Shown: piece after piece, positions 8,951-56,445 of the stretch
Layout: each line of letters starts with the position of its first letter
Position numbering within the stretch: the stretch's first letter is position 1
IMG/VR virus record: IMGVR_UViG_3300046485_000109
Location: 1-56,445 of that record
Length of the DNA stretch: 56,445 nt
Direction: 5' to 3' (one strand)
Source of the DNA: a virus
Program-made: the position numbers and the translations under genes
The notes under the pieces: generated by a model
What the model was told of the DNA's origin: nothing
Database searches by the model: none
Seen by the model: the letters and a program-made list of their open reading frames with translations, nothing else

Positions 8951-11164
8951 TTATTTGCCATCGTCGACAGTTAATTTAACTGCGACATTTACACCATTTG
9001 AAACATAACCTTTAGTCACTTCAGCTTTATAACCAACTTGAATTGATGTTGCATGACCAGCATATGTGATCACCGCGCAATCAGCAACTGTAAAGGTTTT
9101 AGTACCAATAGTAACTTGATTTCCAGAAACCGCTGTTACTTTAGCATTTGCTACTGCAGATTTAGCACCAGAAGGAACTGCGCAAGATGCTGCAGGTACT
9201 GGAGTAGCTGTTGCAGGTACTGGAGTAGCTGTTGCAGGTACTGGAGTTGCTGTTGCAGGTACTGGAGTTGCTGTCGCAGGAACCGGAGTAGCCGTTGCAG
9301 GTACTGGAGTTGCTGTCGCAGGTACTGGAGTTGCTGTCGCAGGTACTGGAGTAGCTGTTGCAGGTACTGGAGTAGCCGTTGCAGGTACTGGAGTTGCTGT
9401 TGGAACTATAACTACAGGAGCAGGATCAACAGTTACTGTAGTTGGAATACAGTACATTGGTTTCCCATTAGCATCGACTGCTGCGCCATATGAACCAGAA
9501 TAAGTAACAAATCCACCATTAGGGAATGTGCCATTCAATAATCCACCATTAAATGCATATACAACACCAGTTGCAGGAATTGCAAGTAGGGTTGAAGCAG
9601 TAGTAATGTACGCAGATTTCAAAATAGTTCCGTCGATTTTTGCAATGCTTCCATTTCGTGCAGTACCATTAAGAATTACTTCACTTACACCAGAACAAGC
9701 TTGGGCTACTGGAGGTGGAGCAACTATTTGGCCATTAGCATTTAAAATGTTCATTGTATAAACTTGAGCACTTACAGTTCCATCAACATCTGTTACATGA
9801 ACAGTAAAAGTAAATGCACCAGCAACCGTAGGTGTTCCAGAAATAATACCGGTGTCAGGCGTAATTGCTAAACCATCAGGTAATGCACCAGTATCAACAG
9901 TTATAAAATAAGGAGCATTACCACCAAAGACAATAGTATTATCTTCCATTTTGGTATTGACTTTAATATCTGGCAAATTAGGTAGTTGTGTCAATGGCAT
10001 AACATCTTCAAATGCAACCATATTACCAGCTAAGTAAGTACCAACAAGTGCAACTTTAGAACAATCATATTGAGCGGTAAAAACATCAAAGATTGCAGGA
10101 TCCCAAGTAGTAATACCTACATTTGTTTGTGAACCGTGGATACCATCAGGACCAATTGCATCACACATTTGCTCATGTGTTTCATAGTCAAATGATTCAA
10201 CTGGTGCAATATTTTTAAACCATTCATATTTGCGAGTAATAGTTTCATCATTAGCTACATTTTCAGCAGCACCAACATGAGCTTGTTTGGCTCCACCATT
10301 TTGTCCAGCTGGTGGGGTTTGAACAAGATACCACTCACTTTCAATTTGAGCAGGTTCACCATTTTGCCAATCAGCTAAACCATCTCCATTATTATCTTCA
10401 TTAACCAACGCTTTTACAACGTCATCAGCATTTTTTCCGATTTTTTTATTATGAGTTGAAGTTTTAGTAACTTTCAACCATGTTGGTGTACCCCATTGAG
10501 CAGGAGGAACTGGAGCTTTTTCAGCGGGTGCTGGTTGAATAGGAACTACTTGAACAACTGGTGGTTGAACAGGAGCTACCCAAGGTTGAACAGGAGCTGG
10601 AGCTTGAAATACAGGAGCAGCCATACTTGCACCAGGGACAAGAGCACCAGCACTAGTACCGTGAACTAGTTTGCCAGTACCATCATCATTCAACCAATAA
10701 TAAGCAATAGATGTAACACCAGTTGGACCAGCTGACATTGCTGTCACGAAATGTTCACAACCTGTATCACCAACAGGTGAGGTACAAGAATGTCCACCAG
10801 TTGCCCAAGTACCAGACATTGGAATAGTGTTAACTACATATTTGCCAGTGGCATCTTTTAAAGATTCATAATGAACGACTGCATGAGGTTTACCAGCAGC
10901 ATCAGTATAAGAAGTAATTGTAGGTGCTTTATATCGACCATAAGTCCATGTATAACCTACTTGAGAAGGAAACGCATTTTCATAATCGATTTCAAACCCG
11001 TATGCAGGTTTACCAGTATCATTTGCGATGTCAAAGTTACCGGCAGTGCCACTTAGCACTCCAGCTGTAGAACCGCAAACACCATATCCATTACATGCTA
11101 CTGTCGCACTCGCAATAGGCGTAAAGAACGATGCCAAAAGCGGCACGTATTTCATAAATTTCAT
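8951..11164 (-). CDS. Secreted Ig-like protein with VPATATP repeat linker
   Basis: 737 residues. A signal peptide (KYVPLLASFFTPIASA) ends near residue 20. The body is Thr/Ala/Gly/Pro rich and Cys-poor. Residues about 400-475 form a putative Ig domain of the He_PIG type (DTGIISGTPTVAGAFTF). About ten VPATATP heptads at roughly 587-657 form a rigid linker before a C-terminal beta domain of about 75 residues. The protein is presumably exported or displayed. It has its own late box (11222-11229) and terminator, so it is a single-gene late unit. No catalytic motif is visible; adhesion or host-surface modification is a guess. Confidence 0.75.
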   Translation of the reverse strand: MKFMKYVPLLASFFTPIASATVACNGYGVCGSTAGVLSGTAGNFDIANDTGKPAYGFEIDYENAFPSQVGYTWTYGRYKAPTITSYTDAAGKPHAVVHYESLKDATGKYVVNTIPMSGTWATGGHSCTSPVGDTGCEHFVTAMSAGPTGVTSIAYYWLNDDGTGKLVHGTSAGALVPGASMAAPVFQAPAPVQPWVAPVQPPVVQVVPIQPAPAEKAPVPPAQWGTPTWLKVTKTSTHNKKIGKNADDVVKALVNEDNNGDGLADWQNGEPAQIESEWYLVQTPPAGQNGGAKQAHVGAAENVANDETITRKYEWFKNIAPVESFDYETHEQMCDAIGPDGIHGSQTNVGITTWDPAIFDVFTAQYDCSKVALVGTYLAGNMVAFEDVMPLTQLPNLPDIKVNTKMEDNTIVFGGNAPYFITVDTGALPDGLAITPDTGIISGTPTVAGAFTFTVHVTDVDGTVSAQVYTMNILNANGQIVAPPPVAQACSGVSEVILNGTARNGSIAKIDGTILKSAYITTASTLLAIPATGVVYAFNGGLLNGTFPNGGFVTYSGSYGAAVDANGKPMYCIPTTVTVDPAPVVIVPTATPVPATATPVPATATPVPATATPVPATATPVPATATPVPATATPVPATATPVPATATPVPATATPVPAASCAVPSGAKSAVANAKVTAVSGNQVTIGTKTFTVADCAVITYAGHATSIQVGYKAEVTKGYVSNGVNVAVKLTVDDGK
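9192..9402 (-). repeat. 21-bp tandem repeat, about 10 units
   Basis: Ten in-frame copies of a 21-bp unit, each coding VPATATP, inside the secreted protein gene. Units differ at third codon positions, so the amino-acid repeat is older than a fresh slippage product and is probably maintained by selection. Confidence 0.9.
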
Positions 11165-14207: not shown

Positions 14208-15080
14208 TCAAATTGTTAAAGAGCATATTTTCTGTTTAGTTTTAAATTCTCCGCAGCAGCTAAGACTACAAAATTTTCTATTTTTTCTAATATCTCGCTG
14301 ACAAGCTTTAAAAATAATTTCACAATTTAAACATTGTAATTCACTCCAATTTCGCTTTGGATCTAAAATCACTTTTTCTTTTTTCTTATTTTGTTCTTTA
14401 CTCCATCCAATAGGAATGATATCTATTTTTAAAATTTTAGTATTTTGTTTTGGTTTTCGTCCTTTACACCAACCAGATGGAATGATGTCTGTTTTTAATA
14501 TTTTAGTATTTTCTAAAGTATCTAAATTATAAATCCATATCTTTCCATACTGAGAATTCTTTTCACCTTGCTGATGACAATTATTTTTATGAATTAAACG
14601 AATTTTTAGTTTCGTTTCATCAGAATGTGTTTTTCCAGTAAAAGTATCATATTTTATTTTACCTTCAGCATGAAGTTTTTTAGCTAGTGTACTCATTCTA
14701 TTTTTATTTCGATTTACACATTCTTGATTATTCCAAAAATATTCAGCAACTTTTTTACCATTTTCTTTTCTAAATTCTTGATTTTCCATTTGATTAATAT
14801 AATCAAATCCGCCGTGACCTCCACGGCGGAGATTATAAACATCTTCCCTCAAGAGAAATTCCTCAGTTACGATTTCTTTTTCTCTTGCATACATATCTTC
14901 AGTATTACTAAAGAATTCTAGTATGTCTTTACGAAAGTTTTCTAAACCATGCTTTTCAATAGCATATTTTAACACCTTTCCTGAGCCCATATACCCATCT
15001 TCTAAATTCTGGGTTTTATGAACGCCAACATAGATCTTGTTATTCACGAGGTTAGTGATTTGATAGATGTAATAGTACAT
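14208..15080 (-). CDS. GIY-YIG homing endonuclease with C-terminal zinc finger
   Basis: 290 residues. Residues 1-95 form a GIY-YIG nuclease domain: YYIYQITN, KIYVGVHKT, YMGSGKVL, the conserved catalytic Glu region (EKEIVTEEFL) and YNLRRGGHGG. The middle carries repeated basic segments (two near-copies around NTKILKxDIIPxGW), typical of DNA-binding modules, and the end has CLNC...CSLSCC cysteines for a zinc finger. A TATAAATA box lies 20 bases upstream. A free-standing mobile gene between host genes. Confidence 0.88.
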   Translation of the reverse strand: MYYYIYQITNLVNNKIYVGVHKTQNLEDGYMGSGKVLKYAIEKHGLENFRKDILEFFSNTEDMYAREKEIVTEEFLLREDVYNLRRGGHGGFDYINQMENQEFRKENGKKVAEYFWNNQECVNRNKNRMSTLAKKLHAEGKIKYDTFTGKTHSDETKLKIRLIHKNNCHQQGEKNSQYGKIWIYNLDTLENTKILKTDIIPSGWCKGRKPKQNTKILKIDIIPIGWSKEQNKKKEKVILDPKRNWSELQCLNCEIIFKACQRDIRKNRKFCSLSCCGEFKTKQKICSLTI

Positions 15081-16312: not shown

Positions 16313-17224
16313 ATGATAAATTTAACACCTAGATGTTCATGTATTATTTGTAGAAATAATCAATCTGCAAAAGGCATTCATTCTCATTTTATAACAGCAC
16401 ATACAAAAGAAGGAAATGATAGGATTAAAAATACTTCAAAACATTCTAGTGCTAAAGCAACAACTACTCGCAAAAATAAAAATTTTATTTTAAATTTAGA
16501 AAAATGGAAAATATATTATTCTAATCCTACTAAATGTAAACACTGCAACCAAGATCTTGATTGGTTTAAACGAAAAAATACATTTTGTGATGCTTCTTGT
16601 GCCGCTAATTTTACTAATAAATTACGTCCGGTTGGGCATTCTAGTCGAATTAAAAATAATAAAAATAGATCAGACAAACTTAAAAATTTTTATAAAGATA
16701 TTAGTAAAATAAAAATTGATACTAAAAAACAAAAATTTTCAAAAGTATCGTTTTGTCAAATTTGTAATAAATCTATTCCATACAAATTAATCAAAACGTG
16801 TTCTTCTAAATGTTATAAACAACTGCTAAGTATTAAAGCTTCAACACGAATGACACATCCACAAAATGGAAAAACTATTTTATACAATGGCATTAAATTA
16901 GGTTCATCATATGAATTAAAAGTAGCACAATCATTAGATGAATATAATATTACTTGGACTAAGCCAAAACCTTTATTATATACCGATCCAAATAATAAAA
17001 TGCGTCGTTACTTTGCAGATTTTTATCTTCCGGATTTTAATATCTATTTAGATCCGAAAAATGATTTTTTAATTAATAATACTAATCCAGAAACCGGATT
17101 TAATGATTGTGAAAAAATTAAACGGGCTGAAATTTATAATAATGTGAAGATTATAATTCTTAATAAAAATCAACTTAATTGGAATACTATAAGATTATTA
17201 ATTTGTAGGGAAGGAGGGACTTGA
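16313..17224 (+). CDS. Homing endonuclease (zinc fingers plus EDxHD/Vsr-like nuclease)
   Basis: 303 residues, opposite in strand to its surroundings. Three Cys clusters (CSCIIC...H.H, CKHC...CDASC, CQIC...CSSKC) look like zinc fingers. The C-terminal domain SSYELKVAQSLDEYNITW...RRYFADFYLPDFNIYLDPKN has the E...D-x-x..K layout of Vsr-like (EDxHD, PD-(D/E)XK fold) homing endonucleases. The stop lies inside the T loop of the tRNA-Leu copy on the other strand. The gene splits that tRNA from its matching 3' end, as expected for an endonuclease-borne insertion. Confidence 0.75.
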   Translation: MINLTPRCSCIICRNNQSAKGIHSHFITAHTKEGNDRIKNTSKHSSAKATTTRKNKNFILNLEKWKIYYSNPTKCKHCNQDLDWFKRKNTFCDASCAANFTNKLRPVGHSSRIKNNKNRSDKLKNFYKDISKIKIDTKKQKFSKVSFCQICNKSIPYKLIKTCSSKCYKQLLSIKASTRMTHPQNGKTILYNGIKLGSSYELKVAQSLDEYNITWTKPKPLLYTDPNNKMRRYFADFYLPDFNIYLDPKNDFLINNTNPETGFNDCEKIKRAEIYNNVKIIILNKNQLNWNTIRLLICREGGT

Positions 17225-25408: not shown

Positions 25409-26782
25409 TTATTCAACAATAGAAATCTTATCGTCTTCAGTAAGATTAACTATTTGTGGAATACTTCCAACAAATCTTTGTCGAGGATTAAATGAAATGT
25501 GTGTATAAGGACTGTCATCACTAACACCCATATCACCCCCAATCATTATAGTTCCTATAACATCGGCAATATGATTAGATGTAAAATCACCTCTCAATCG
25601 TGTCATAATATCACCCAGCAAATGTTCAATCGTATTTGCTTTGTATTCAATTCGACTATCTACAATAACCGATGATTGAACTCCAGGAACTTCACCATAT
25701 CTTGGAGTTCTAAATCTAAATGTTGCATTAGCTTCTTGTGGAATATAATATGGATAAACAATCTTTACTTTCTTACGTTGCTCAGTTGTTAAATTCAATA
25801 AATCTTTACCTAACATTGTCGCTGAAACAACCAATTTTTTGCCAGAAGATAATTGTGATTTTATTTCTTCATAATTTCCAAAGGCCTTAATGTATTCAGG
25901 ATGTGATTTAATATACTCGTCAGCACTGTCACCTTCACCAGATAATCCCTTTGTCCAATAATATGTGTAAATAGAAGGTGTTAAACCTGGGGCATCTGTG
26001 ATAGGCAATAAAGTTGGTATATGTTTATCTTCTGAAAACTGTTGAATTGTATCCCATGAACCTGTTACCATACCACTTACAATTAGAGTTGGTGGTGTCT
26101 GTTTATACTTTTCTTCAAGTTGTTTTGGCCATGTTGATTGATCTCCAGTCAATTTCCAGATAGAATAATCAATTGCTCGAAAATCTTTTATAACTTTTGA
26201 AGCGCTTCTATTATGTAAAAATACAAACTGTTTAATCTTATTCTCAAATATCTTAACATCACTTTCAGGTATTCCATCTGAAACGATAGTTACCAATTTC
26301 ATCCTATCAGTAGTAACTCCAACCGGTTTTTCTGTATTGAGAGTTTTCAAAAAAGAAACTAAAGATTTTAATTCAGTTCCAGAATAAGTATACTTTGGCA
26401 TGATTACTTCTAAATGTCTATTAGAAGGATCAATTCCTTTTGTAATCGCAGTCTCTAGTGTCTTATCATTATAAGCTGGTCTTGCTGGAATTTTTCCATA
26501 TTTGTCAATTACATATTTGTGAACTGATTTTTCGTACATATTCCCATTAGTAAGTGTTTCACGACCAACTGTTGGTAACCCTGAATATGAACTAAATAAT
26601 GCTTGTTTGTTGATAGGAAGAACAATAGAAGCTCCTTCTATCATTCCTGATCCTGATTGTAAATGACATTCTACACATGCTCTTTGTCCATGTAGACCTT
26701 TATAATAAATCTCTTTACCGAAATCAGCGTGTACAGATGAACCGGCAATTGCGATTACCATTGCTGAAGCTCCAATACCCAT
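25409..26782 (-). CDS. c-type cytochrome fused to a periplasmic-binding-like domain
   Basis: 457 residues. A signal peptide ends at about residue 19 (AGSSVHA). The heme site CVECH is at 36-40 and a likely axial Met is in IMPKYTY near 127, making residues 20-150 a mono-heme class I-like cytochrome c. The rest (about 155-440) reads like a type I periplasmic-binding fold (LVTIVSDGIPESD, PPTLIVSGMVTGSW, VVSATMLGKDL). The host's cytochrome c maturation system would have to attach heme. It is the last gene of the operon with the multicopper oxidase, so electron transfer with it is likely. Leptothrix mofABC also pairs a large multicopper oxidase with a c-type cytochrome gene. Confidence 0.8.
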   Translation of the reverse strand: MGIGASAMVIAIAGSSVHADFGKEIYYKGLHGQRACVECHLQSGSGMIEGASIVLPINKQALFSSYSGLPTVGRETLTNGNMYEKSVHKYVIDKYGKIPARPAYNDKTLETAITKGIDPSNRHLEVIMPKYTYSGTELKSLVSFLKTLNTEKPVGVTTDRMKLVTIVSDGIPESDVKIFENKIKQFVFLHNRSASKVIKDFRAIDYSIWKLTGDQSTWPKQLEEKYKQTPPTLIVSGMVTGSWDTIQQFSEDKHIPTLLPITDAPGLTPSIYTYYWTKGLSGEGDSADEYIKSHPEYIKAFGNYEEIKSQLSSGKKLVVSATMLGKDLLNLTTEQRKKVKIVYPYYIPQEANATFRFRTPRYGEVPGVQSSVIVDSRIEYKANTIEHLLGDIMTRLRGDFTSNHIADVIGTIMIGGDMGVSDDSPYTHISFNPRQRFVGSIPQIVNLTEDDKISIVE

Positions 26783-36595: not shown

Positions 36596-37474
36596 CTACT
36601 GATTTGAGAACAAGTTATCAATTTTAGAAATTCTTTCTTTCTTAAGAAAATCACCAATCGCTCTACCTTTCAAATGAACAATAAACTCTGACAACTCTTT
36701 GACAGTTACTGTGCTATAAGCATTCATCATATCAGTAGCTCTATCTGGGTTTTTCATATTGTCTTGATTTACAGTAGTCCACAGGTAAAAAACTGTCCAG
36801 AATCTCAGTGAATCATGTGATACTCTAAACTCATCAAATAATTCAACTGTTGATTTACTATCGACATCATACAGTTCTTCAAACCTTTTATAATCCAATG
36901 CCAAATCTCTTACACTATTCGGAAACTTCATTTTTTCACAAACAGAAACAATCACATCTCTTTCAAACATCGTAAAAATATAAGCCAACCGTTCAGTAAC
37001 TGTTTTCAACTTAGGAACAAAGGTTACAATTTTAATATAACTTGGCGAATCTAAAAATTTATCTAGTTCAGGAAAGATAACATTTAGTGCATCCGTAATA
37101 ACTAGTACACCCAAAAAAATGATTGGGTCTTTTTCACTAAAAGCTTTTTCAAATTCAGCAACAATCCGTTCTTTTGACAAATGTTCGAGTTCTCCATTTT
37201 GAACAATTTCTTTCATTAACTCCATCGTTCTTTTATCAATTTTAAAGTCTGGATATCTAGCAGCAAACCGAGCAACTCGCAATACTCTCAATGGATCTTC
37301 GGCAAAAGCAGGTGATACATGTCTCAAGATTTTATCTTCCAAATCTTGACGACCATTAAATGGATCAATAATAATTCCAGTATTTTCATCCAGAGCCATG
37401 GAATTTATAGTAAGGTCTCGTCTTGAACTATCTGAGATTAGGTCTACAAAATCTTTTACTGTTATCATATTCAT
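36596..37474 (-). CDS. cca: CCA-adding enzyme, C-terminal fragment of a split gene
   Basis: 292 residues from ATG 37474, which has GAGGAG at ideal spacing and a TGTGATATAAT box upstream. It carries SSRRDLTINSMA, IIDPFNGRQDLEDKILRHVSPAFAEDPLRVLRVARF (in parts, the nucleotide-binding and template region of class II tRNA nucleotidyltransferases) and a helical tail for tRNA binding. It lacks the catalytic GG and DxD motifs, which are in the 38494-38832 fragment. The upstream interruption carries an HNH endonuclease. The two polypeptides may assemble into an active enzyme that matures the phage tRNAs lacking CCA. Confidence 0.85.
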   Translation of the reverse strand: MNMITVKDFVDLISDSSRRDLTINSMALDENTGIIIDPFNGRQDLEDKILRHVSPAFAEDPLRVLRVARFAARYPDFKIDKRTMELMKEIVQNGELEHLSKERIVAEFEKAFSEKDPIIFLGVLVITDALNVIFPELDKFLDSPSYIKIVTFVPKLKTVTERLAYIFTMFERDVIVSVCEKMKFPNSVRDLALDYKRFEELYDVDSKSTVELFDEFRVSHDSLRFWTVFYLWTTVNQDNMKNPDRATDMMNAYSTVTVKELSEFIVHLKGRAIGDFLKKERISKIDNLFSNQ

Positions 37475-37495
37475 TGTCAAATCTCCTCACTTTAG

Positions 37496-37503
37496 TATAA
37501 ATA
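37496..37503 (+). promoter_or_regulatory. T4-like late promoter box for the endonuclease
   Basis: Exact TATAAATA on the plus strand, 30 bases before ATG 37533. The opposite strand of the same stretch carries a TGTGATATAAT box (37505-37514) serving the downstream cca fragment. Confidence 0.6.
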
Positions 37504-37532
37504 AATTATATCACACTTCTTTAGGAAAGTAT

Positions 37533-38525
37533 ATGAAAGATAAAATTTTAGAAGAATTTTCGGTTTTAGATTGTATCATTAGCCATAAAAAATTAGAAGA
37601 ATATGTGGATTTTTGTTTGTCTAATACAATATCAAATAAAAATAACTCATCATCACATCATATTTTGCCAGTTGCAAAAACATTGCCTTTTAAGAAATTT
37701 GAAAATTTGAAAGATTATCCATGGAATAAGGCTGAACTTTCATATTATAATCATTATTATGCTCATTTCTTATTAGCTCAAGCGATAAACCATTTATCAG
37801 TAATTACTGCTTTTTGTGGAATGCATAAAAAAGATATAATTTTAGAAAGACTTTCCGAAAATGATTTAATTAATGAAAGCGAGTTTAATGATCTTTACAC
37901 AAACCGAAATGTTCTTATAAGCAAATGGCGTAAAGAAATTATTTCTATTGATGGGGTTGAAATGTCTCGAGCTAAATTCTATAACTTAAATAGAATTGTT
38001 CCTCAAAAAGAAAAAGACAAACACATCAAAAGAATGAAAGAAAATAATATAGTTCATTTACCTGGCGTTTTAGAGAAATTAAGAAAAACTAAATCCGAAA
38101 CTTTTATAAATGGTAAAAATTTAGATACTATTTCAGCTGAACTTGCCGCAGAAACTATGAAAAAAGAATTCTATTTAGAGTCTGGCGAATTAACTACTAG
38201 ATATAAAGAAAATGGAAGAAAAATTTCAAAAACTTTAAATACAGAATTTTTAGATAGTAATGGTAATATAACAACACTTGCTAAAGAAAAAGGAAAGATT
38301 ATCCAGAAAACCTTGATAGCTAAAGGAAAATTTTATTACCTAAAAAATGTCTTTGACTTTACTATTTGTGAACATTTGCCTGCAGTAGAAATTAGAAAAA
38401 TTTGTGCCAACCTTGAAAAGAAAACTAAAGAAAATTATTTAGGACAGGAATTGTCAGCACAAACTCTTCTTATAAAAAATGGAAAAGAACACTTTATCGG
38501 ATCTTATGTTGAAAGATGTCCATAA
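37533..38525 (+). CDS. HNH homing endonuclease inserted in cca
   Basis: 330 residues, opposite in strand to cca. Residues about 48-90 show [10 protein letters not shown], then NLKDYPWN...[15 protein letters not shown], the HNH pattern with the second and third histidines in a helix. The rest is basic and helical with repeated segments ([18 protein letters not shown]) that may contact DNA. Its stop overlaps the end of the cca N-terminal fragment by 32 bases. Imperfect 16-base direct repeats (37457-37472, 38529-38544) flank the insertion. Confidence 0.8.
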
Positions 38526-54304: not shown

Positions 54305-54811
54305 ATGACCGCCGACATTTTAGAATTTTCAGAACCAACTAAATTAGAAAAACCAAAAAAAGCTAGACCAAAAAAAGTTTTACGAGAAAAACGTAATAAT
54401 GATGAAGGTTGTTATGTAACAAACGCTCAACTTCTTCCTGAAGTGCTTCGAGCAAAAGAATTAGGTAAAGTCACACCTGAATTAGCAATCATGATGCAGA
54501 AAATTGCAGAACGATATGCTATGTCAAAAAACTTCGCTCACCTTTCCTTTAGAGAAGATATGGTTGCGGCCGGAGTTCTTAATCTTCTGCAAAATGGATT
54601 AAAGTTCAATCCTGAAAAATCAAATAATCCATTCTCATACTATACCCAATGTCTATATCATTCCAGCCTTCAGGTCATAGCTGACGAAAAGAAACAGCGT
54701 CAAATACGCGATGACTTACTATTAGATAGTGGGTTTGATGCATCGATGTCATATATGGAAACAGAACGAGATGAATATCGTCAAAGACATTCTGACATAT
54801 TTGAAGATTAA
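54305..54811 (+). CDS. 55: Late-transcription sigma factor gp55
   Basis: 168 residues, close to T4 gp55 (185). After a basic start, EDMVAAGVLNLLQNGLKFNPEKSNNPFSYYTQCLYHSSLQVI is present in parts as the sigma region 2-like core of gp55, followed by KKQRQIRDDLLL. gp55 binds host RNA polymerase and reads TATAAATA late promoters, of which this window has many exact copies. RBS GAGGAG upstream. Confidence 0.9.
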   Translation: MTADILEFSEPTKLEKPKKARPKKVLREKRNNDEGCYVTNAQLLPEVLRAKELGKVTPELAIMMQKIAERYAMSKNFAHLSFREDMVAAGVLNLLQNGLKFNPEKSNNPFSYYTQCLYHSSLQVIADEKKQRQIRDDLLLDSGFDASMSYMETERDEYRQRHSDIFED

Positions 54812-54828: not shown

Positions 54829-55899
54829 ATGGAAGATCAATTAGCTACTGTTCGTCTAGAATTATCACCAATTTCTAAAATTGCTATGTTTACGGACATC
54901 CACTTTGGGTGTCACAATAATTCTAATCAACACAATCAGGATTGTTTAGACTTTGTGGATTGGTTTATTGTTCAATGTAAAGAACAAAAAGTAGATGCCA
55001 TAGGCTTTTTGGGCGATTGGTTTGAAACCAGGAATTCATTAAACATTCTAACGCTTAAACATTCTAATACATCATTAAGAAAATTAAATTCCTTAGGATT
55101 GCCAATTTTTTTTATTATTGGTAATCATGATTTATATCACCGTCATAATCGTGATGTGCATTCAGCAGATTTATTTCGTGAATTTGAAAATGTTCATATT
55201 ATCGAAGAACCAGTAAAAGTAAATGATTCTCTTTTATTTCTACCATTTTTATTTAATCATGAATATGCTCAAGTTGTAAATTTAGTTAATGCATCTGAAT
55301 ATGTCTTTGGTCATTTCGAGTTTCGGAATTTCTATTTGACTGGTACATCGAGAGTCGCTGAGCATGGTTATCATCATAAGATTTTTGATGGTCCCAAACA
55401 TATTTTTTCTGGACATTATCATAAGCGACAAGCTTCAGATAATGTGATTTATATTGGAAATCCATTTGCTACTTCTTATGCTGATGCCGGTGATTATCAA
55501 CGAGGGTGTTGTATTCTTGAAACAGCATCTGGTGAAGTCGATTTTATCGATTATGTTGGTCCTACTTATGTTAAGACAAAATTAAGTTTGCTATTAGCTG
55601 GAGAAGTCGATCTTAGGCAGCAAGCTAGATTGAAATGCATATTAGACGTGGATATTACATATTCAGAAGCACAATCATTAAAGGCGGAATTTCTTGAATT
55701 ATATAAGTTAAGAGAATTTTCGCTTGAAGAAAATTCTCGAGAACAGCAAGCTTCTTTAGAAGAAACTGCAATGGCTGAACTTGATGAATTAGATTTAAGT
55801 TCGCTAAATGAAACAGTAAAAAAATTGATAGAAGCTGGTGTTCAAGCTACTACTAATATAGATCCAAAAAAACTTATCATAGAATATGAGGCACTTTAA
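54829..55899 (+). CDS. 47: Recombination endonuclease subunit gp47 (Mre11-like)
   Basis: 356 residues. All metallophosphatase motifs are present: DIHFG near residue 25, FLGDWFETR, IGNHDLY, FGHFEF and FSGHYHKRQ. With gp46 it forms the Mre11/Rad50-type complex that resects DNA ends for recombination-dependent replication. The stop overlaps the gp46 start (TAATG). Confidence 0.93.
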   Translation: MEDQLATVRLELSPISKIAMFTDIHFGCHNNSNQHNQDCLDFVDWFIVQCKEQKVDAIGFLGDWFETRNSLNILTLKHSNTSLRKLNSLGLPIFFIIGNHDLYHRHNRDVHSADLFREFENVHIIEEPVKVNDSLLFLPFLFNHEYAQVVNLVNASEYVFGHFEFRNFYLTGTSRVAEHGYHHKIFDGPKHIFSGHYHKRQASDNVIYIGNPFATSYADAGDYQRGCCILETASGEVDFIDYVGPTYVKTKLSLLLAGEVDLRQQARLKCILDVDITYSEAQSLKAEFLELYKLREFSLEENSREQQASLEETAMAELDELDLSSLNETVKKLIEAGVQATTNIDPKKLIIEYEAL

Positions 55900-56150
55900 T
55901 GTCGATTGCTTTAACGCTCAATAGTATTAAATTTAGAAATTATCTATCATATGGAAATGCATGGACAGAATTACGATTTGATAACGGGATAAACACTTTT
56001 ATTTCTGGTGAAAATCATGATACTGGATCTAAAAATGGATGTGGAAAATGTGTTTTAGGAGAAACTCTTATAAATATTAGAAATAAGAAAACAGGTGAAA
56101 TTATTTCAATACCAATAGGAGAATTTTATGACATGCATGAAGGGACATAA
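55899..56150 (+). CDS. 46: gp46 N-terminus joined to a short intein N-fragment
   Basis: 83 residues. Residues 1-50 are the start of the Rad50-like ATPase gp46 and end in its Walker A loop (SGENHDTGSKNGCGK). Where Ser/Thr should follow Lys50, the sequence reads CVLGETLINIR...GEIISIPIGEFYDM, an intein block A with catalytic Cys51. The frame stops at 56150 after only 33 intein residues. That length resembles atypically split inteins with short N-parts. The rest of the intein and of gp46 should lie beyond the right edge. A plain frameshifted intein is the alternative. Confidence 0.88.
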   Translation: MSIALTLNSIKFRNYLSYGNAWTELRFDNGINTFISGENHDTGSKNGCGKCVLGETLINIRNKKTGEIISIPIGEFYDMHEGT

Positions 56151-56445
56151 ATCTGAAAGTTCAAAAATTGAATTTATTAACAAAGTGTTAGATGAAATAA
56201 TAAAAGATTTAGAACCTTCATTTAGAGAGAAATTATATACGATAGGAATTGAAAATTTACATTTACGTAGAATTGATATTTCGAAAAAAATAATTTCTAA
56301 CATTAATGGAAATTCAAACGGAAGAGGTAAAAATTATTGGATATCTAGAGGATGGGATGAAGCTGATGCCCACACCAAATTTAAAAAACAACCAAAACGA
56401 AAATCAATATCTCCATTTTCTTTAGAATTTTGGATAGAAAAAATA
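56128..56445 (+). CDS. Endonuclease-like ORF overlapping the intein fragment, cut by window edge
   Basis: ATG 56128 has AGGAG six bases upstream, inside the intein coding sequence; the frame stays open to the edge (106 codons). After a helical start it reads NGRGKNYWISRGWDEADAHTK then SPFSLEFWIEK, a W..RG(W/Y)..EA pattern I associate with N-terminal regions of Vsr-like phage homing endonucleases. Nuclease residues would lie outside the window. The proper RBS argues for a separate gene rather than a frameshifted intein middle. Confidence 0.6.
   Translation, partial: MTCMKGHKSESSKIEFINKVLDEIIKDLEPSFREKLYTIGIENLHLRRIDISKKIISNINGNSNGRGKNYWISRGWDEADAHTKFKKQPKRKSISPFSLEFWIEKI

What the first reader, a model, noticed from the sequence alone, without database searches (positions are those of the whole stretch)
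55899..56445. Atypically split intein in the Walker A motif of gp46, with an overlapping gene between the halves
Seen: gp46 ends its P-loop at Lys50 and continues directly with a Cys-started intein block A; the frame closes 33 residues later; a new ORF with its own Shine-Dalgarno sequence starts 22 bases before that stop. Known: fractured genes in metagenomic phages carry split inteins with Vsr-like endonuclease genes between the halves, and some TerL inteins have N-parts of only about 25 residues. Inference: gp46 is made as two polypeptides joined by trans-splicing, which would rebuild the P-loop only after both are made. A short-N split intein in gp46 is new to me.
Basis: partly seen in the sequence, partly recalled or inferred. 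Interest (0 to 1): 0.88.

Follow-up and report, generated by a model that had tools for sequence, protein, structure and literature searches.

The report
Split intein breaking phage gene gp46
A bacterial virus has its DNA-recombination gene gp46 broken in two inside the ATP-binding loop by a self-splicing protein element (a split intein) with a DNA-cutting homing gene between the halves; the window shows only the first half, but about twenty related viral sequences show the whole arrangement.

Summary
gp46 (55899-56150) runs to P-loop Lys50, continues as a 33-residue intein N-part starting with Cys, and stops. A new ORF starts inside it (ATG 56128, own Shine-Dalgarno) and is cut off by the end of the record at 56445. 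An uninterrupted relative reads GCGK|SSILEA at the same point.

The downstream half cannot be read: the record ends there. Relatives settle the architecture. In IMG/VR about 18 distinct gp46 alleles show the full triplet: gp46N-IntN (32-40 aa), an overlapping endonuclease gene (350-376 aa), and IntC-gp46C (intein part 122-138 aa, ending HN|S/T). All sit at exactly this P-loop site. The window's second ORF matches only the N-terminal third of those endonucleases (E 1e-17). Fold comparison links one relative's nuclease to Vsr and I-Bth0305I. The distribution is sporadic (at least nine changes on a gp46 tree), as for a mobile element.

So this is a 'fractured gene' with an atypically split, short-N intein: a known kind, in a host gene for which I found no report. 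Unexpected: the endonuclease's ribosome-binding site and start codon are written inside the intein's conserved GEFY codons at a nearly fixed offset. Trans-splicing itself is inferred.

The parts
54829..55899 (+). gp47 (SbcD-like nuclease subunit), intact, immediately upstream; stop overlaps gp46 start by 1 base
   Evidence: phrog_100 E 1.3e-56; 62-66% identical to gp47 of the nearest intein-less relatives
55899..56048 (+). gp46 N-extein, 50 codons, ending at P-loop Lys50 (GCGK)
   Evidence: phrog_77 E 1.1e-5; aligns with L002 gp46 residues 1-52
56049..56147 (+). intein N-part (IntN), 33 codons, Cys1; stop codon 56148-56150
   Evidence: homologous to IntN parts in 20 or more other loci
56117..56121 (+). 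AGGAG ribosome-binding site of ORF2, formed by the IntN codons for I-G-E (ATA GGA GAA)
   Evidence: same position in relatives
56128..56445 (+). ORF2: N-terminal 106 codons of a homing-endonuclease gene, truncated by the record end; overlaps the IntN ORF by 23 bases
   Evidence: phmmer E 1.1e-17 to L136/L137 and 1e-12 to 1e-17 to others at the same place; alignment A4

Best explanation
gp46 in this T4-like phage is a fractured gene. [quoted passage not shown] By inference, two polypeptides are made (gp46N-IntN, and IntC-gp46C beyond the record end). They associate and trans-splice through Cys1, the block B His, the C-terminal Asn and the Ser/Thr at +1, restoring GxxxxGK[ST]; until then no gp46 ATPase exists. 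The endonuclease, translated from a site inside the IntN codons, would cut intein-less gp46 alleles so that the element is copied into them. Shown: the two ORFs, the exact insertion site, homology of both to complete systems at the same site, and sporadic distribution. Inferred: the missing C half in this phage, splicing, cleavage and homing.
For: Empty-site relative L002: NGCGK|SSILEA. Full triplet at the identical site in about 18 alleles, with IntC carrying block B-like C-A-D-x-H, block F-like and SHN| followed by T or S in the main lineage. IntC of L040 matches VidaL (PDB 6vgv, E 5e-7) and Pfam Intein_splicing; L006 passes the curated cut-off. ORF2 matches the N-terminal third of the endonucleases, and every significant hit among 8133 ORFs of the fetched loci is an endonuclease of this kind, nearly all in this slot. 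The overlap of 23 bases lies within the relatives' range of 20-47. The nuclease domain of relative L144 folds like Vsr (1vsr, prob 1.00) and I-Bth0305I (3r3p, prob 0.99). Intein presence needs 10 changes on the gp46 tree, 9 forced by strong branches. The window's eight nearest gp47 relatives all lack it.
Against: The C half, IntC and nuclease domain of this phage are not in the record, and no other IMG/VR record held here continues it. No splicing or cleavage has been measured for any of these alleles. Some relatives carry decayed parts (L103 endonuclease truncated, L120 IntN frame-shifted), so decay here cannot be excluded. Foldseek E-values for the nuclease are weak (0.28-0.6) although probabilities are high.
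Confidence: 0.92

Rival explanations
1. A contiguous intein (or intein plus internal endonuclease) whose frame is broken by one sequencing or assembly error.
For: Contiguous inteins do sit at this site in other phages (L059 with LAGLIDADG; L192 mini-intein).
Against: ORF2 is homologous from near its start to free-standing endonucleases that begin at the same place, with its own SD and ATG, not to intein blocks. The same stop/overlap arrangement recurs in about 18 alleles.
Confidence: 0.02
2. A decaying element: IntN and ORF2 are present but the C half is lost or dead and gp46 is non-functional in this phage.
For: Only the N half is in the record; decayed relatives exist (L103, L120).
Against: All readable parts are intact (frame, Cys1, conserved GEFY motif, SD, 106 open codons). 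gp46/gp47 are needed for recombination-dependent replication in T4 (established knowledge).
Confidence: 0.05
3. Gene breaking by a free-standing homing endonuclease without splicing: gp46 works as two separate subunits.
For: Such breaking is known for a phage ribonucleotide reductase gene (cited in PMC10448857).
Against: The break lies inside the P-loop, which two chains could not easily form. IntN homology is clear, and all relatives with a readable C half carry IntC ending HN|S/T.
Confidence: 0.01

Closest known systems
Fractured genes with split inteins and Vsr-like (EDxHD) homing endonucleases, Dassa et al. 2009 (NAR 37:2560; not held here, known through citing papers and memory)
   Same: Conserved phage DNA-metabolism enzyme split by an intein with an endonuclease gene between the halves; Vsr-like nuclease
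   Different: Host gene is gp46, split in the P-loop; very short IntN; endonuclease start embedded in IntN codons. Whether gp46 is among the gene types of that paper could not be checked.
Atypically split inteins AceL-TerL (IntN 25 aa), GOS-TerL (37 aa), VidaL (16 aa), PolB16 (15 aa) (PMC11766414, PMC13014065, PMC10189870)
   Same: Short IntN carrying only block A, long IntC with blocks B, F, G; Cys1 (not PolB16). L040 IntC matches VidaL structure 6vgv
   Different: Inserted in gp46; IntN 28-40 aa across intact alleles, 33 aa in the window
Phage TerL inteins (Vibrio phages VAP7 and Kuja, Ackermannviridae, Campylobacter phages; uncultured phage LR756500)
   Same: Same IntN/IntC family, also after a P-loop Lys; LR756500 is itself a fractured TerL with an endonuclease gene
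   Different: Different host protein; contiguous in Kuja
I-Bth0305I / Vsr endonucleases
   Same: Best credible structural matches of relative L144's nuclease domain
   Different: Relatives here carry a long N-terminal repeat region (YWxxRGWSExEA); some have a different C-terminal nuclease; the window's copy is truncated before the nuclease

Membership tests
Fractured gene with split intein | Conserved gene broken exactly at an intein insertion site, N-extein followed by IntN | tested here: met
   GCGK|CVLGET..., against empty site GCGK|SSILEA in L002
Fractured gene with split intein | Separate endonuclease ORF between the intein halves | tested here: met
   ORF2 homologous to endonucleases in that position; only 106 codons present
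Fractured gene with split intein | Downstream ORF with IntC (blocks B, F, G, ending HN) then Ser/Thr/Cys and the C-extein | tested here: inconclusive
   Beyond the record end in the window; met in relatives at the same site
Fractured gene with split intein | Protein trans-splicing | not testable with these tools
   needs experiment
Atypically split (short-N) intein | IntN of about 15-40 aa containing only block A | tested here: met
   33 aa in the window; 28-40 aa in most intact relatives
Atypically split (short-N) intein | Complementary IntC of about 100 aa or more with block B | tested here: inconclusive
   absent from the window; 122-138 aa with C-A-D-x-H in relatives
EDxHD/Vsr-like homing endonuclease | Vsr-like nuclease domain | tested here: inconclusive
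   domain lies beyond the record end; present in most relatives, probably replaced in L139/L142
EDxHD/Vsr-like homing endonuclease | DNA cleavage at the empty site and homing | not testable with these tools
   sporadic distribution is consistent
T4 gp46 / SbcC-type ATPase | N-terminal Walker A region adjacent to gp47 | tested here: met
   phrog_77 and phrog_100 hits, gene order

The most novel reading that the evidence does not exclude
The atypical split point of these inteins is set by the endonuclease gene. The conserved IntN motif G-[ED]-[FL]-Y doubles as the Shine-Dalgarno, spacer and start codon of the endonuclease (GGAGAATTTTATG), with the ATG 10 or 13 nt after the start of the Gly codon in the window and in all about 19 main-lineage gp46 alleles with an endonuclease ORF. 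Short-N split inteins would then originate by an endonuclease gene starting inside the intein. Gene-less splits (L070, L152) would be remnants that stay split after losing it.
Probability: 0.35. Interest if true: 0.65.

Novelty: new member of a known kind. Interest (0 to 1): 0.52.

Why it matters
It adds the phage SbcC-like recombination ATPase to the genes broken by split inteins, at a position where the ATP-binding loop exists only after splicing. It gives about twenty natural short-N intein pairs, in a size range useful for protein semisynthesis, with sequences ready for testing. The series at one site (contiguous mini-intein, LAGLIDADG intein, split without endonuclease, split with endonuclease, swapped nuclease domain) makes the origin of split inteins directly comparable.

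Tried and rejected
Searching for a record that continues past 56445: exact 32-base end pattern in IMG/VR, none; ORF2 as sole query in IMG/VR and GTDB contigs, none, because short peptide patterns missed it; its relatives were found through gp46 instead. DNA similarity to phage records: none. No gp46 intein surfaced in phage records, though only the best-ranked rows were listed; the annotated IntC hits listed there are nearly all TerL. Pfam and NCBIfam do not recognise the 33-aa IntN, nor does the PDB. The fold of the L139 endonuclease was low confidence in its C-terminus and PDB sequence search found no GIY-YIG, so the domain swap rests on phrog_681, a sub-threshold T5orf172 match and the alignment. 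A follow-up Pfam call failed on a frame error. Literature for gp46 or SbcC inteins: none found; Dassa 2009 is not held.

Full report
What is in the window. The record ends at 56445. gp55-like late sigma factor (54305-54811) and gp47 (54829-55899) precede gp46, a T4-like set of genes. gp46 starts at 55899, reaches P-loop Lys50, and continues with CVLGETLINIRNKKTGEIISIPIGEFYDMHEGT before TAA at 56148. ORF2 starts at ATG 56128, 6 nt after AGGAG, and is open to the end.

The insertion site. The gp46 of L002, whose gp47 is 66% identical to the window's, is uninterrupted and reads NGCGK|SSILEAIVYAIYNK. The window's Cys51 therefore stands where Ser should be; an intein between Lys and Ser/Thr is the natural reading.

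Complete systems elsewhere. tblastn of that gp46 over the fetched loci showed L040, L006/L007, L011 and L059 broken exactly between residues 52 and 53. L040 has three overlapping ORFs: gp46N-IntN (39 aa), a 376-aa endonuclease, and IntC-gp46C with ...SNGFLSHN|TTIINAICYA. A scan with L040's C half and one with the N half raised the count. A census found 23 distinct allele rows with an intein at this site, nearly all with GxGK|C and HN|[S/T]. About 18 main-lineage alleles carry IntN, an intact 350-376-aa endonuclease ORF and IntC-gp46C. Others are split without an endonuclease gene: L070 (30 bp between the ORFs), L152 (ORFs overlap by 4 bp), L011. L192 is a contiguous mini-intein, and L059 (and probably L214) carries an Ala1 contiguous intein; LAGLIDADG is confirmed in L059. 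IntC parts carry a block B-like CADxH and end SHN; L040 IntC matches VidaL, 6vgv, at E 5e-7, and L006 IntC passes the Pfam Intein_splicing cut-off.

What ORF2 is. With phmmer against 8133 ORFs of the fetched loci, ORF2's significant hits are the endonucleases in the same slot (E to 1.1e-17). It covers their first third: helical region and the first YWxxRGWSExEA and SPxSxEFWxxKI motifs. The model of relative L144 (mean pLDDT 78, weaker in the nuclease domain) has as credible PDB matches 1vsr (probability 1.00), 1cw0 (0.91) and the homing endonuclease I-Bth0305I, 3r3p (0.99, TM 0.71 by target length), though E-values are 0.28-0.59. A profile search also ranks three Vsr chains first, at a marginal 0.29. 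L139 and L142 share the N-terminal 240 residues but end in a T5orf172/GIY-YIG-like stretch. The window's own catalytic type is therefore unknown.

Embedded start site. In the window the Gly-Glu-Phe-Tyr-Asp codons read GGAGAATTTTATGAC: SD-like GGAG, spacer and ATG. In every main-lineage gp46 allele with an endonuclease ORF the ATG lies 10 or 13 nt after the first base of the Gly codon. The Gly codon is GGA or GGG in 19 of 21 such alleles against 3 of 8 without the gene (Fisher p 0.008); alleles are related and the groups were counted by hand, so this is only suggestive.

Mobility. On a tree of 121 gp46 C-parts, intein presence needs 10 changes, 9 forced by strong branches. L040's sister gp46 L031 lacks it. 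On the gp47 tree the window's eight nearest relatives lack it. This fits gain by homing, though losses cannot be separated from gains.

Relation to known kinds. Short-N inteins with 15-37-aa IntN are described (PMC11766414, PMC13014065, PMC10189870); fractured genes with Vsr-like endonucleases are due to Dassa et al. 2009, not readable here. The same IntN family sits after the P-loop Lys of TerL and other phage ATPases. I found no paper naming gp46, but the library is partial. I file it as a new member of a known kind.

Noticed in passing
L139:1787-2839, L142:2214-3266 versus L144:2958-4022: Endonucleases at the gp46 site share the N-terminal ~240 aa but have different C-terminal nuclease domains (T5orf172/GIY-YIG-like versus Vsr-like): an apparent catalytic-domain swap.
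   Followed up: partly
L059:5966-8848, L192:5001-5553, L214:5013-6755: The same gp46 P-loop site also carries contiguous inteins: LAGLIDADG with Ala at position 1 (L059; L214 begins alike) and a Cys1 mini-intein (L192).
   Followed up: partly
L152:5140-5330 and L070:3857-4370: Split gp46 inteins with no endonuclease gene: L152 halves overlap by ATGA, L070 halves are 30 bp apart.
   Followed up: partly
window 37398-38525 (+), 14208-15080 (-), 16313-17224 (+): Further endonuclease ORFs in the window, the first two homing-endonuclease-like (phrog_655, phrog_314; the third phrog_15137, endonuclease); neighbouring genes not examined for interruptions.
   Followed up: no
L228:3173-6764 (LR756500.1): Fractured TerL with a split intein and endonuclease gene in an uncultured phage record without annotation.
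   Followed up: partly
window 8951-11164 (-) and 25409-26782 (-): Large ORFs (737 and 457 aa) with no PHROG match at E 0.001.
   Followed up: no
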